64,000 bases of DNA, taken from positions 2,927,501-2,991,500 of the forward strand of contig NZ_JAVSJA010000001.1 in assembly GCF_032027425.1 (NCBI RefSeq). Direction: 5' to 3'. This DNA comes from Microcystis wesenbergii NRERC-220. Its GTDB lineage: Bacteria; Cyanobacteriota; Cyanobacteriia; Cyanobacteriales; Microcystaceae. The notes beneath the pieces were generated by a model that searched no databases, was not told the origin of the DNA, and saw only the letters and a program-made list of their open reading frames with translations. The number at the start of each line of letters is the position of its first letter. Within the stretch, counting starts at the first letter, position 1. Positions 50,510 to 55,626 of the stretch are shown here, piece after piece. The position numbers and the translations under genes were made by a program.

Positions 50510-51010
50510 CTATTGAGCGATTACTATCACTGAAGTGCCGATTTGTACCTTTTCAAATAAAGCCTTTATATCTCGATCGCGCATCCTGACGCAACCGTGG
50601 CAGACGGCGCTGCCGATGAGATTTTCTGGGGTTGTACCGTGAAAACCGATAAAATTCTCGCCATTAGTCCAAAATCCGAGCCAAAGCACCCCTAAAGGGT
50701 TGTTTTTTCTCGATGGCACCAGTTGACCGGTGAAAGGATGTTCCCAGACCGGTTCCCGCACCATCTGAATCATCCGAAATTGTCCCGTCGGGGTTTCCCA
50801 ACCCGGACGACCGATCGCCCCTGGGTAAGAAGCAATTATTTTCTGTACTTGGTAAACAAAAACCCGTCTTTTTTTTAAATTCAGCAGCAAACGGGTTTCC
50901 GTTCGGGTTGCCGTGGTTGCGGGAAGGGAATTGACGGGACTAACTGGGGGATTGAGCAAAAATTCCCCCATTCCTAGACATAAACAGAGAATCGGCAGCA
51001 AAACTCGCAT
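50510..51010 (-). CDS. L,D-transpeptidase (YkuD family)
   Basis: A 166-residue exported enzyme (signal peptide VLLPILCLCLGMGEFLL) that cross-links peptidoglycan through 3-3 bonds or anchors proteins. The active site is FIGFHGTTPENLIGSAVCHGCVRM: His, then Gly-Cys-Val-Arg-Met. The residue before HGC is Cys in place of the usual Ser/Thr. The product of the gene at window position 2-1414 carries a related C-terminal motif. Confidence 0.9.
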   Translation of the reverse strand: MRVLLPILCLCLGMGEFLLNPPVSPVNSLPATTATRTETRLLLNLKKRRVFVYQVQKIIASYPGAIGRPGWETPTGQFRMIQMVREPVWEHPFTGQLVPSRKNNPLGVLWLGFWTNGENFIGFHGTTPENLIGSAVCHGCVRMRDRDIKALFEKVQIGTSVIVIAQ

Positions 51011-51448: not shown

Positions 51449-52057
51449 TTATGGATTGTTTTCCCCCACCTCCCACTTCCCACTTCCCACTTCCCACTCT
51501 CCTATACCTTTTAAACAGGATTTAGTATGAACATCAAAGAAGCTAGGTCGTTGAACGCTTCGCCCGCTGGCATGGGGGACAAAAAGGGGATCGATCGCAA
51601 AGCGCTCGCTACGCGAGAACGCCGCGACCTGAACAAGCTGTTCAGGCTTGGCCACTACGGCCGGAAGGTCGGGGATTTTTGTTTCTAACTCTTCAATGAA
51701 GTAGAAAGAGGAGGTGGCTAAGGGTACAGCCAAGGGTTTACCCTGCTTGCCCTGAGCTTCGTCGAAGGGAGCTACGTCGAAGGGAACTGTGGGCCGTTCG
51801 CCCACAGCAGCCGGGGAGGTTGCTGCGGCGGATGGCACCAGATAATCCCGATCCGTACTCAACCCCTTCGCCACCTCGGCCTTAAGGTCGTGCCGTTGTA
51901 GTTCTTGAATTATCGTCTGGGCGAGATGCTCAAGAAGGTCAGGTTGAAATAAGGGGTTAAGAGAAATGTTCTCGACCTCAGTTAGGGCAGTCGTGGGCGG
52001 GGATACAGAGGGTAGATTCCCCCCCGCCTTTTCAGGGATCAGTTCGGGGTTAGTCAT
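51449..52057 (-). pseudogene. Truncated cargo: N-terminal targeting region of family 2A encapsulin cysteine desulfurase
   Basis: Begins at ATG 52057 (MTNPELIPEKAGG), overlapping the encapsulin stop by 8 bp (ATGACTAA); an in-frame ATG at 52084 is possible. It is a disordered N-terminal region followed by FYFIEELETKIPDLPAVVAKPEQLVQVAAFSR.ERFAIDPLFVPH and ...SFFDVH, where the SufS-type catalytic domain should begin (FDVHAIRRDFPIL in homologues as I recall). After FFDVH the frame enters repeat DNA (GIGEWEVGSGKWEVG from cccacttcccactt repeats) and stops. The PLP lysine and catalytic Cys are therefore lost. A palindromic repeat (PFDEAQGKQGKP) is inserted in frame in the linker. Confidence 0.8.
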
Positions 52058-52423
52058 AGTCGTAGATGTGGTATTGGTTGACATCAACGTTCTCCAGTAC
52101 GGCCGCCGCATCGTCGGTCAACACTGCCAACGAACAGTAGAGGGAGACTAGGTAAGAGGAGATCGCCTTGCGACTAATCCCCATAAATCGCACCGACAAG
52201 CCAACTCCCTGTTGACCGGGTAAATTGGGCTGATAGAGACCGACCCCCCCTTGACGGCTTTCTCCTACCCGCAATAACAAAATATTGGTTTTGCCTTGTT
52301 CATTCACGGCCAACTTATCGGAAGGAATCAAAGGCACGCCCCGCCAGGTAATAAACTGAGACCCGAATAATGACACCGTGGCAGGGGGTACACCCCGTCG
52401 GGTTGCTTCTCGGCCAAAGGCCG

Positions 52424-52453
52424 CGGTCTCGCGTAGCGAGCGCGTTGCGACCG
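52424..52453. repeat. Short palindromic repeat inserted in frame in the encapsulin gene (copy 1)
   Basis: 30 bp identical to 52634-52663, with outer arms cggtc/gaccg and an inner dyad ctcgcgtagcgag. It encodes VATRSLRET, which interrupts an otherwise conserved LAHP.A(V/I)AAFGRE. The net gain appears to be 24 bp. Confidence 0.9.
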
Positions 52454-52633
52454 CTTTAGGATGGGCGAGGAAAAATGCCGGTTCCTTCCACACCTTCACC
52501 AGCAACTCATCCAAATCGTCTGGCGTGGGCGCACCATTGCGAGGTTGCACTTTCTGAGAATCAACAATATTGTTCAGCAATCCGTACTCATGGTTGTTGA
52601 TCAACTCATTTTCTTGACGTTCCTTCAGGGTTT

Positions 52634-52663
52634 CGGTCTCGCGTAGCGAGCGCGTTGCGACCG
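52634..52663. repeat. Short palindromic repeat inserted in frame in the encapsulin gene (copy 2)
   Basis: Identical to 52424-52453. It encodes the same VATRSLRET between EQLRLT and ETLKERQENELINN, where homologues read straight through. A third related stretch (tctcgcgtagcgagcg) lies in the cargo gene near 51600-51625. Confidence 0.9.
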
Positions 52664-53107
52664 TCAGCCGCAATTGTTCATGGATCTGATCGTGGGGACT
52701 GCTGTAGAGATCGGACACGCGAGTGTGAACATCCAGTACCGTATTCACCGCACTCAAGAAATACTACCGGGGGGTCTCTTCGTAATCCACAAACGTTTCG
52801 GGCAGCTCCCGCTCCGAAACGTTCAGAGCAGGCCACCTCAACGCGGGAGGCATCCCTGACTTTGTTCAGACGATAAATCCCCGCTTCAACGGGTAGCCAA
52901 TGCAAGAGGCGAACGAACCACCGGGGCGAAATGGTCAATAACTGAGGAACGGTCTTCGTGGCATTGGCTAACTGCCGAGCGGCAGCATCTCCCAAAGCCA
53001 GTTGCAATTCATGATCTTGGCTATACGTCATCGAGTTAAACCCTCCAATTCAAAAAAAAGTAACAAAGCGACTCTCATGGCCGAACATTCACAGTCAGGA
53101 CAGCACC

Positions 53108-54067
53108 TCAAATTCCAGAGCCGTCATCAAACATTTCCTGTCGTAGTTGAGCCTGGGAGACAAAACCCCCCGGCGGCACACTGCGGGTTAACCAAACATT
53201 TCCACCAATGGTTGCGCCCCGACCGATAGTTACCCGACCGAGAATCGTTGCACCTGAGTAAATCACCACATCATCTTCAATAATCGGATGACGGGGTTGA
53301 CCTTTGATTAAACTGCCCGATTCGTCCCGGGGAAAGCTTTTTGCCCCGAGCGTGACCGCTTGGTAAAGGCGCACGCGGTCGCCAATCACCGTGGTTGCCC
53401 CAATCACCACCCCCGTCCCATGATCGATAAAGAAGCTATTGCCAATCGACGCACCGGGGTGAATGTCAATCCCCGTTAAGGAATGACCAATTTCACTGAT
53501 AATCCGCGCCAACAGGGGCGAGTCCAACCGATACAGGGCATGGGCAATGCGGTGATAAGTGATGGCCGTTACCCCGGGGTAACAAAACAATACTTCATCT
53601 AAATTTCTGGCCGCCGGATCACCTCGATAGGCCGCGGTGATATCGGTTTCCAGCAGAGCCTTCAGATGGGGTAATTGAGTGGCAAAGGCTTGTACCGTTC
53701 CTTGGGCGTGCTTCTCAATCTGGTCTGACGACCAGTGCAACTGCGACCCCAGCAACCACTGTTCACGACAAACTTGGTGATGCAGCAGTTGTAGGACTTC
53801 ATTGAGGGTATGACCGATAAAATAGCGGCTGGATGTTTCGCCTAAATCGGGATTACCAAAGTGATAGGGAAAGAGAACGGCGCGCAGTCGATCGACAATC
53901 CTAAATAAGGCCTCACGGGAGGGCAAGGGGAAATGGCTTCGTGATTGAGACCAACTGTGGAACGACTCGCCACGAGGTTGAGACAATTGAGTGATAATCT
54001 CATCGAGAGCCAAGGACAGGGGCGGTTGGGAGAGAGCGCCAGAACTGCTCGGATGCTCGCTCGTCAT
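53108..54067 (-). CDS. srpH: Serine O-acetyltransferase, SrpH/EpsC type
   Basis: Makes O-acetylserine, the precursor of cysteine. 319 residues: a helical N-terminal part ([22 protein letters not shown]) and then [34 protein letters not shown]. The C-terminal part is a left-handed beta helix, [39 protein letters not shown], with the catalytic His in DHGTGVVIG. Intact. Its ATG overlaps the cysteine synthase stop (ATGA), and the encapsulin gene follows after 76 bp. Confidence 0.93.
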
Positions 54068-55044
54068 GCCACTAACCCTTGCTCATTAAATACCCCTTGG
54101 AACAGGATGGAACTCAAGTACCGTTCTCCGGAATCTGGCAAAATTACGACAATGGTTTTGCCTTGGTGTTCGGGTTGTTGTGCCAAGCGAGCGGCGACGG
54201 CGGCGGCGGCACCGCAGGAAATGCCGGAGATAATCCCTTCTTCCTTGGCCAATCGTTGGGCATAAAGAATGGCATCTTCGTTGGAAACGGTTTCAATCCC
54301 ATCCACGAGGGATAAATCCAGAACTTCGGGAATAAACCCCGCCCCAATGCCCTGAATTTTGTGAGGGCCGGACTTTAAGGGCTGACCTGCCCGGGCTTGG
54401 GATAGTACCGGGCTGGCCTCTGGCTCCACCGCTACCGATAAAATCGGTTTTCCTTGGGTCTTTTTGATGTAGCGCGAAACTCCCGTAATGGTTCCGCCCG
54501 TTCCCACACCCGACACGAGAATATCGATCGCCCCATCTGTGTCCTGCCAAATTTCGGGGCCGGTGGTTTCCTCATGGATGCGGGGATTGGCAGCATTGCG
54601 GAACTGTTGCAACAACACATAGCGATCGGGATTAGACGCGGCAATTTCTTCTGCCTTTGCCACCGCTCCGGTCATGCCCTTGGTCCCTTCTGTTAACACC
54701 AGATTGGCTCCATAGGCGAGCAATAGTTTGCGCCGCTCCAAGCTCATGGTTTCAGGCATGGTTAGGGTCAGGGGAATCCCCTTGGCGGCGGCTACAAAGG
54801 CTAGGGCGATGCCTGTATTGCCACTGGTGGGTTCGACCAGTTCTTTGCCCGGCCCCAATAATCCCCGTTGTTCCGCATCCCAGATCATGGCCGCACCAAT
54901 ACGACATTTGACCGAATAGGCCGGATTGCGACCTTCAATCTTGGCCAGAACCGTGGCGTGACTGTTGCCAACGACTCGATTAAGGCGCACTAGAGGAGTC
55001 CGCCCGATCGACAAACTGTTATCTGCGAACCATTTCTTACTCAC
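54064..55044 (-). CDS. srpG: Cysteine synthase (O-acetylserine sulfhydrylase), SrpG/CysK type
   Basis: A PLP enzyme joining O-acetylserine and sulfide to give cysteine. 326 residues from GTG 55044, with ggag 10 bp upstream. Motifs: [33 protein letters not shown] (PLP Lys in SVKCR), [37 protein letters not shown] (PLP-phosphate loop) and [11 protein letters not shown]. First gene of the srpG-srpH-encapsulin-cargo operon; two tandem 22-bp repeats lie upstream at 55097-55140. Confidence 0.95.
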
Positions 55045-55140: not shown

Positions 55141-55436
55141 TAGCCGATGCACTATCAACCTCTGGTCAAGCTAAACAAATCTTTATAATTAAGGGGTGTA
55201 GGCGATCGCTGAGGTGGAAGAATCTATCCTGAATTATTCACCAATTGCCAAAACCCTGATTATGAGAGGGTCTCAAAAAACAGTCTGTTTTTTAGCTAGA
55301 GCCCTGAATGATTTTCCTAGCAAGGCTTTTGAGTATTTTCCCAAATTTTCATGAATAATACAGGCTATGAGGGATCTGGGCATAACTTTGGCGTTAAGTG
55401 GGTGGGTGGAATTAAATATAAGATGAACGTAGGTTG

Positions 55437-55491
55437 GGCTTCGGCCGTGAGCTTTTGCGTTCGACAAAAGCTCACGCCGAGGTCCGAACGG
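55437..55491. repeat. GC-rich palindromic repeat, second copy of 51079-51132
   Basis: Perfect 12-bp arms cgtgagcttttg/caaaagctcacg (55446-55457, 55465-55476) flanked by cggc and ccg. It is inserted inside another repeat: gtaggttggg before it and ttgaagcatgaaaccc after it rejoin if the palindrome is removed. Confidence 0.8.
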
Positions 55492-55626
55492 TTGAAGCAT
55501 GAAACCCAACGCCCGCATAGTTTACGCTACCGCTAACCCATCCTACAAATAATTGTGCCTCCCTACTTATGCGGCCTAGGTTATCAGTGCCATGGCGAAG
55601 GGACTGCCTAGCAGTACGCCGCTCCA

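What the first reader, a model, noticed from the sequence alone, without database searches (positions are those of the whole stretch)
51449..55044. Decaying family 2A encapsulin / cysteine desulfurase operon with its cysteine-synthesis half intact
On the minus strand the order is srpG (intact), srpH (intact, ATGA overlap), encapsulin shell (frameshift plus nonsense), cargo cysteine desulfurase (only the targeting region left). The same gene set is known as the sulfur-regulated srp locus in Synechococcus, where the shell encloses a cysteine desulfurase. Here the compartment is lost while cysteine synthase and serine acetyltransferase remain open. This is a natural knock-out that separates the enzyme half from the compartment half. 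The locus also looks more GC-rich than its surroundings (not calculated), which may mean acquisition by transfer.
Basis: partly seen in the sequence, partly recalled or inferred. Interest (0 to 1): 0.85.

Follow-up and report, generated by a model that had tools for sequence, protein, structure and literature searches.

The report
Broken sulfur compartment, intact cysteine genes
In this Microcystis genome the genes for a protein shell and its sulfur-releasing enzyme are recently broken, while the two neighbouring cysteine-making genes still look whole; the gene set itself is already known, so this is a natural mutant of a known system rather than a new one.

Summary
On the minus strand lie a cysteine synthase gene (srpG) and a serine acetyltransferase gene (srpH), both open. 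They are followed by a family 2A encapsulin shell gene with a frameshift and a TAG stop, and by a cargo gene reduced to its targeting domain. A same-species genome (G011) carries the whole operon intact at the same chromosomal site. Against it the window shows a hairpin-forming frameshift patch, a nonsense codon, four small in-frame inserts (three of one repeat family) and a 1,408-bp deletion removing the desulfurase domain. Of 12 Microcystis genomes held, six keep the whole operon, five lack srpG, srpH and shell, and only the window is split. The loss looks recent. srpG and srpH show purifying selection overall, but the branch is too short to tell whether they are still selected since the shell died. 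The G+C excess is real (53% against 42%), yet synonymous divergence resembles that of a flanking gene, so acquisition was not recent. The reading is partly supported: a genuine, young natural knock-out of a known, apparently dispensable system.

The parts
54064..55044 (-). srpG, cysteine synthase A (O-acetylserine sulfhydrylase), intact, GTG start
   Evidence: TIGR01139 450.8 bits over cut-off 350.95, PF00291; 97.5-98.2% identical to six Microcystis relatives, no internal stop
53108..54067 (-). srpH, serine O-acetyltransferase (EpsC/CysE type with long N-terminus), intact, overlaps srpG by ATGA
   Evidence: NF041874 162.2 bits over cut-off 150; TIGR01172 167.4 bits, below its cut-off of 210.65; 95.0-98.1% identical to six relatives; C-terminal GI invariant in 7 aligned sequences
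52050..53031 (-). family 2A encapsulin shell gene (srpI), pseudogene
   Evidence: two pieces match NF041162; PF19307 283.5 bits for the 3' piece; six relatives have an uninterrupted 310-aa gene
52792..52823 (-). frameshift patch (52819-52815, net +1 base) that completes a hairpin; arms 52823-52814 and 52801-52792
   Evidence: private to the window in a 7-sequence alignment; predicted fold -12.9 against -5.5 kcal/mol in each of the six relatives
52764..52766 (-). in-frame TAG nonsense codon in the shell gene
52639..52662 (-). 24-bp in-frame repeat insert 1 in the shell gene, at a GATCG/GATTG site of the relatives
52429..52452 (-). 24-bp in-frame repeat insert 2, identical to insert 1, inside what is a HIP1 site (GCGATCGC) in the six relatives
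51449..52057 (-). cargo cysteine desulfurase (cyd) remnant: N-terminal targeting domain, then 24-26 codons of former intergenic sequence
   Evidence: 84% identical over aligned columns to L011 CyD; matches stop where the catalytic domain begins
51731..51778 (-). 48-bp in-frame insert in the targeting domain
   Evidence: absent from L011
51599..51622 (-). 24-bp in-frame insert in the targeting domain; same repeat family as the shell inserts, opposite orientation
   Evidence: 26-mer found with 3 mismatches on the + strand at 51594-51619
51528..51529 (-). junction of the 1,408-bp deletion that removed the desulfurase domain; ATAC at both edges in L011
55045..55224 (-). conserved upstream (promoter) block of the operon, retained
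   Evidence: shared by all 7 Microcystis operons; homology ends at 55224 in five of the six relatives

Best explanation
This is the srp operon of Microcystis in a strain that recently lost the compartment half. In intact relatives SrpH and SrpG would make cysteine from serine, and the cysteine desulfurase CyD would be held inside the SrpI shell through its N-terminal domain. Here the shell reading frame is broken by a frameshift patch and a stop, and the CyD catalytic domain was removed by a deletion with a 4-base repeat at its edges, so no filled compartment can form. srpG, srpH and their upstream block are unchanged in form and most likely still give a working serine acetyltransferase / cysteine synthase pair. 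Shown: gene identities, lesions, intact copy at the same site in the same species, recency (rough estimate). Inferred: enzyme activity, expression, the order and mechanism of the lesions, and that the compartment was dispensable for this strain.
For: Profiles; order identical to S. elongatus pANL; intact 310-aa shell and full CyD in 6 of 12 genus genomes, one of them same-species at the same site; no close copy of the CyD catalytic domain elsewhere in the genome, best match 49% identical; several independent lesions, so not one sequencing error; srpG and srpH dN/dS 0.07-0.16 against six relatives; upstream block kept.
Against: No expression data. On the window branch srpG plus srpH have 5 replacement and 11 silent private changes against 11 and 37 on the other six together, slightly more replacements, so mild relaxation is not excluded. 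The genome holds further CysK- and CysE-like genes, so srpG and srpH may be redundant and simply not yet decayed. The private-change count assumes a star-like phylogeny and ignores recombination.
Confidence: 0.85

Rival explanations
1. The whole operon is dying: srpG and srpH are open only because too little time has passed since the shell and cargo broke.
For: The shell itself has few private changes outside the lesions (4 silent, 1 replacement, 1 stop), so its loss probably fills only part of the branch; srpG plus srpH unconstrained for up to about 20% of the branch is compatible with the counts (P 0.12). Five of 12 genus members lack srpG, srpH and shell together. Paralogous CysK- and CysE-like genes exist.
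Against: No inactivating change in about 1,940 bases of srpG plus srpH, against two inactivating lesions in the shell and one in the cargo gene; this is weak because few stops are expected.
Confidence: 0.4
2. Assembly or sequencing artefact: the strain really has an intact shell and CyD.
For: A lone 1-base frameshift could be an error.
Against: The genome is 2 contigs at 100% completeness; the frameshift is a clustered patch that creates a hairpin; a nonsense codon, inserts of a repeat family found in all 12 genomes, and a 1,408-bp deletion are separate events. Raw reads were not available.
Confidence: 0.03
3. The remnants still act: the targeting domain or the 3' two-thirds of the shell is made and has a use of its own.
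For: The cargo remnant is a 202-codon open frame with the targeting region; the 235-codon shell piece is open and scores 372 bits, close to the profile cut-off of 380.
Against: The shell piece carries two 8-residue inserts relative to SrpI and lacks the conserved N-terminus; there is no complete shell to target.
Confidence: 0.03

Closest known systems
srpGHI-cyd operon of Synechococcus elongatus PCC 7942 plasmid pANL (SrpI family 2A encapsulin with CyD cargo; Nichols et al. 2021, PMC8049743)
   Same: Gene order cysK, epsC, srpI, cyd; shell 3' piece 75% identical to SrpI
   Different: Chromosomal here; shell frameshifted and stopped, CyD reduced to its targeting domain; no match at E <= 1e-3 to the pANL downstream rhodanese in the window or the six relatives' loci
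Intact operon of the same species, G011:C69 (68,554-base contig, same length as Microcystis wesenbergii FACHB-1317 contig160, L064, whose four srp proteins are 100% identical)
   Same: Same site between the HSDR_N-like gene and the YkuD/PQ-loop/FIST genes; 95.8% identical DNA over aligned columns
   Different: Shell and CyD full length; none of the window lesions
Small dispersed repeats of cyanobacteria, module SDR5 (Elhai et al. 2008, paper not held; recalled, and cited in a passage of PMC4390886)
   Same: Very small repeat; insert 2 sits inside HIP1, where SDR5 is said to insert between nucleotides 3 and 4 (passage)

Membership tests
Family 2A encapsulin shell (NF041162 / PF19307) | Profile match, better to 2A than 2B | tested here: met
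   372.2 against 301.2 bits for the 3' piece, 75 against 51 for the 5' piece; 404.8 bits over the 380 cut-off with the stop read through by the tool
Family 2A encapsulin shell (NF041162 / PF19307) | No N-terminal cyclic-nucleotide-binding domain (that marks 2B; PMC8049743 section 5) | tested here: met
   No such Pfam match in the window pieces; intact relatives have 310 aa; the 5' piece matches from profile position 1
Family 2A encapsulin shell (NF041162 / PF19307) | An open, full-length shell gene able to assemble | tested here: not met
   Frameshift patch and TAG; assembly itself not testable here
Family 2A cargo cysteine desulfurase CyD | Disordered N-terminal targeting domain | tested here: met
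   84% identical over aligned columns to the L011 CyD N-terminus; a FYFI-E segment aligns with S. elongatus CyD; disorder itself not computed
Family 2A cargo cysteine desulfurase CyD | SufS-like catalytic domain | tested here: not met
   Removed by the 1,408-bp deletion; no match above 49% identity elsewhere in the genome
srp operon | Order cysK, serine acetyltransferase, shell, cargo on one strand | tested here: met
srp operon | Induction by sulfate starvation | not testable with these tools
   No expression data held
Cysteine synthase A | Equivalog profile TIGR01139 over its cut-off | tested here: met
   450.8 over 350.95
Serine O-acetyltransferase | Profile over cut-off: EpsC (NF041874) | tested here: met
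   162.2 over 150
Serine O-acetyltransferase | Profile over cut-off: CysE (TIGR01172) | tested here: not met
   167.4, below 210.65; so filed as EpsC-type, as pANL srpH is annotated
SDR5 repeat | Insertion between nucleotides 3 and 4 of HIP1 | tested here: inconclusive
   Fits insert 2; insert 1 is at GATCG only; repeat sequence not compared

The most novel reading that the evidence does not exclude
srpG and srpH form a self-standing conditional cysteine synthase module that selection keeps after the encapsulin half is lost, so that the operon is two separable units and the compartment is the expendable one. A lone srpH-type gene in G308 and in other genomes, and the converse case of a truncated srpG beside an intact shell in Spirulina subsalsa, fit such separability.
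Probability: 0.3. Interest if true: 0.45.

Novelty: new member of a known kind. Interest (0 to 1): 0.32.

Why it matters
What the sulfur encapsulin does for the cell is unsettled; knock-outs in S. elongatus showed no growth defect with or without sulfur (PMC8049743 section 6). A strain that lost shell and cargo but kept srpG and srpH open, with an intact same-species strain at the same locus, gives a natural pair for testing whether the two halves work together. It also shows that the compartment can be lost in nature although the shell is more constrained than srpG and srpH in the six relatives that keep it (dN/dS 0 to 0.05 over 15 pairs), which I take to suggest a condition-dependent benefit (inference).

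Tried and rejected
Relocated CyD: rejected for the catalytic domain; the best of five matches in the own genome is 49% identical. All five begin at residue 224 or later of the query, and the window's own targeting remnant was not listed either, so that search says nothing about the targeting domain. Recent horizontal acquisition: rejected for this strain; srpG+H dS 0.105-0.129 against FIST dS 0.091-0.121 for the same six pairs. Plasmid origin: a tblastn search of 72,556 plasmid records returned 32 records with the shell; Synechococcus (6) was the only cyanobacterium in the 20 rows and 10 names I saw, 12 rows and 2 names were not shown, and the tool may leave out records of the window's own genome. 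srpH as an obligate partner of the shell: rejected; of 53 srpH-type loci found in genome contigs 9 have a shell within the fetched flanks, some contigs being short; the scan used two peptide patterns and missed at least two genomes known to have the gene (G001, G010), so 53 is a lower bound. Papers on a decayed encapsulin: searches 'encapsulin' + 'Microcystis' (2 papers) and 'encapsulin' + 'pseudogene' (4 papers) listed none on this subject by title and abstract start (listings only). Profiles for the cargo remnant: nothing in Pfam or NCBIfam; in the PDB one chance-level match (E 0.77).

Full report
What is there. The window is G000:C1:2927501-2991500, from a genome of 4,683,915 bases in 2 contigs at 100% completeness. 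On the minus strand srpG (55044-54064) and srpH (54067-53108) are open and overlap by ATGA. srpG is a cysteine synthase A (TIGR01139, 450.8 bits over 350.95). srpH passes the EpsC serine acetyltransferase cut-off (162.2 over 150) but not the CysE one (167.4 under 210.65). Next come two pieces of a family 2A encapsulin shell in different frames (NF041162: 75 and 372 bits; PF19307: 283.5 bits for the 3' piece) and an ORF without any match in Pfam or NCBIfam. That ORF aligns with the N-terminus of the cargo cysteine desulfurase CyD and stops where the catalytic domain begins. The order is that of the srp operon on S. elongatus pANL.

How it is broken. G011, labelled same species, carries the operon uninterrupted between the same neighbours: the HSDR_N-like gene upstream and the YkuD, PQ-loop and FIST genes downstream. 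The DNA is 95.8% identical over aligned columns. Against it the window shows seven changes of note. (1) Five bases at 52819-52815 stand where the relatives have four, which shifts the shell frame; together with a further private base in the other arm they complete a hairpin, and the predicted fold is -12.9 against -5.5 kcal/mol in each of six relatives. I infer a template-switch event. (2) A TAG codon lies at 52766-52764. (3, 4) Two identical 24-bp inserts sit in the shell gene. (5, 6) A 48-bp and a 24-bp insert sit in the targeting domain; the latter is of the same repeat family in the other orientation. (7) A 1,408-bp deletion removed the desulfurase domain, with ATAC at both edges in L011. 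The four inserts keep the frame; the inactivating events are the patch, the stop and the deletion. The 26-mer of the family occurs three times in the window with up to 3 mismatches, none expected by chance. Its 16-base core occurs exactly in all 12 genus genomes, 16 times in this one, with 0 for the reversed control in each. Insert 2 lies inside what is a HIP1 site in the relatives, as described for the SDR5 module (PMC4390886, passages; the original SDR paper is not held).

Who else has it. Of the 12 Microcystis genomes held, own included, 7 have the shell; six are uninterrupted and the window alone is broken. Those six carry srpG, srpH, shell and CyD. The other five have no shell match, and their best srpG and srpH matches are 60-62% and 47-49% identical, the level of the paralogues that the operon-bearing genomes also have; CyD was not searched in those five. 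So srpG, srpH and shell are present or absent together in 11 of 12, and the window is the only split. In the five relatives of other species the fetched stretches (14.8-18.0 kb) show none of the window's neighbours, so the operon is a block that has moved or been rearranged within the genus. Among 388 genomes of the order, 13 have an srpH match at E <= 1e-60, and 12 of these, the window included, also have a shell of this type. The exception, G308, has a lone srpH-type gene between an FtsH-like and a BioF-like reading frame, the two named by eye and not by a profile search. In all, 59 of the 388 match the shell profile at E <= 0.001 and 28 pass its cut-off; 16 of these 28 have no srpH match, so shells of a more distant kind occur without srpH (I did not look at their neighbours). 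In the 84,980-species collection the scan found 53 srpH-type loci; 9 have a shell in the fetched flanks.

Is the enzyme half still working. Pairwise dN/dS of the window against six relatives is 0.07-0.15 for srpG and 0.07-0.16 for srpH, within the range among the relatives (0.05-0.19 and 0.04-0.24); the shell in the relatives has 0 to 0.05. Private changes on the window branch are 5 replacement and 11 silent in srpG plus srpH, against 11 and 37 on the other six together. Outside the patch and the insert edges the shell shows 4 silent, 1 replacement and 1 stop. Four further private replacements printed lie in the patch (2) or at insert edges (2) and were dropped. A rough Poisson estimate makes it unlikely that srpG and srpH were unconstrained for 30% or more of the branch (P 0.02), and unlikely that the shell was for 50% or more (P 0.046). 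The data therefore cannot say whether srpG and srpH are still selected since the shell died. The genome has two more CysK-like genes (62 and 59%), two more distant relatives (36 and 27%), a further CysE-like gene (49%) and five genes matching the CyD catalytic region, best 49%, so loss of CyD need not be costly (inference). About 180 bases upstream of srpG are conserved in all seven operons.

G+C and transfer. The operon has 53% G+C against 42.5% for the window; srpG and srpH GC3 are 0.57 and 0.54 against a mean of 0.375 (sd 0.09) for 35 other mechanical ORFs, two of which reach 0.546 and 0.560. Four of the six intact relatives were measured and show the same contrast. Synonymous divergence of srpG+H between window and six relatives (0.105-0.129) is like that of FIST (0.091-0.121). 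Any transfer thus lies as far back as the divergence of the sampled genus members.

Against what is known. Nichols et al. (PMC8049743; abstract, sections 5, 6, 7 and part 1 of 2 of section 12 read) showed that the CyD N-terminal domain loads cargo into SrpI, that both proteins rise on sulfate starvation, and that knock-outs had no growth defect. PMC8346489 (passages only) reports serine acetyltransferases and rhodaneses as the most enriched accessory genes of cysteine-desulfurase encapsulin operons. The intact system here is that system. What is added is a recent natural null of its compartment half, with the intact same-species counterpart.

Noticed in passing
L053:9492-8181 (G082; 53,306-base contig, same length as Spirulina subsalsa FACHB-351 NODE_108, L069): srpG is cut after about 120 codons and runs straight into srpH, while shell and CyD match over their full length: the converse of the window. 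Draft genome, reads not checked..
   Followed up: partly
L012:6380-6728 and L015:7397-7745: Two Microcystis genomes (G010, G006) carry a nearly identical 349-base insert between srpG and srpH, hairpin-like at the ends by eye; possibly a small transposable element.
   Followed up: no
   Followed up: partly
window 55569-55397 and 51132-51081: Extra stretches absent from L011 share the repeat CCGTTCGGACCTCGGCGTGAGCTTTTGTCGAACGC; about 80 bases at 55490-55569 recur in 3 of 8 further genus stretches (L056, L061, L062).
   Followed up: no
window 50510-51010 against L011:11609-12235: The YkuD (L,D-transpeptidase) gene is open in the window but carries a 126-base insert in L011, where only a 103-aa frame is listed.
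   Followed up: no
L011:3210-5932: 2.7 kb upstream of the operon with ORFs of 319 and 431 aa is absent from the window.
   Followed up: no
window 51594-52662: Three copies of one repeat family lie within 1.1 kb (two with the exact 16-base core, which occurs 16 times in the 4.68-Mb genome): local clustering of small repeats in a broken gene pair.
   Followed up: partly
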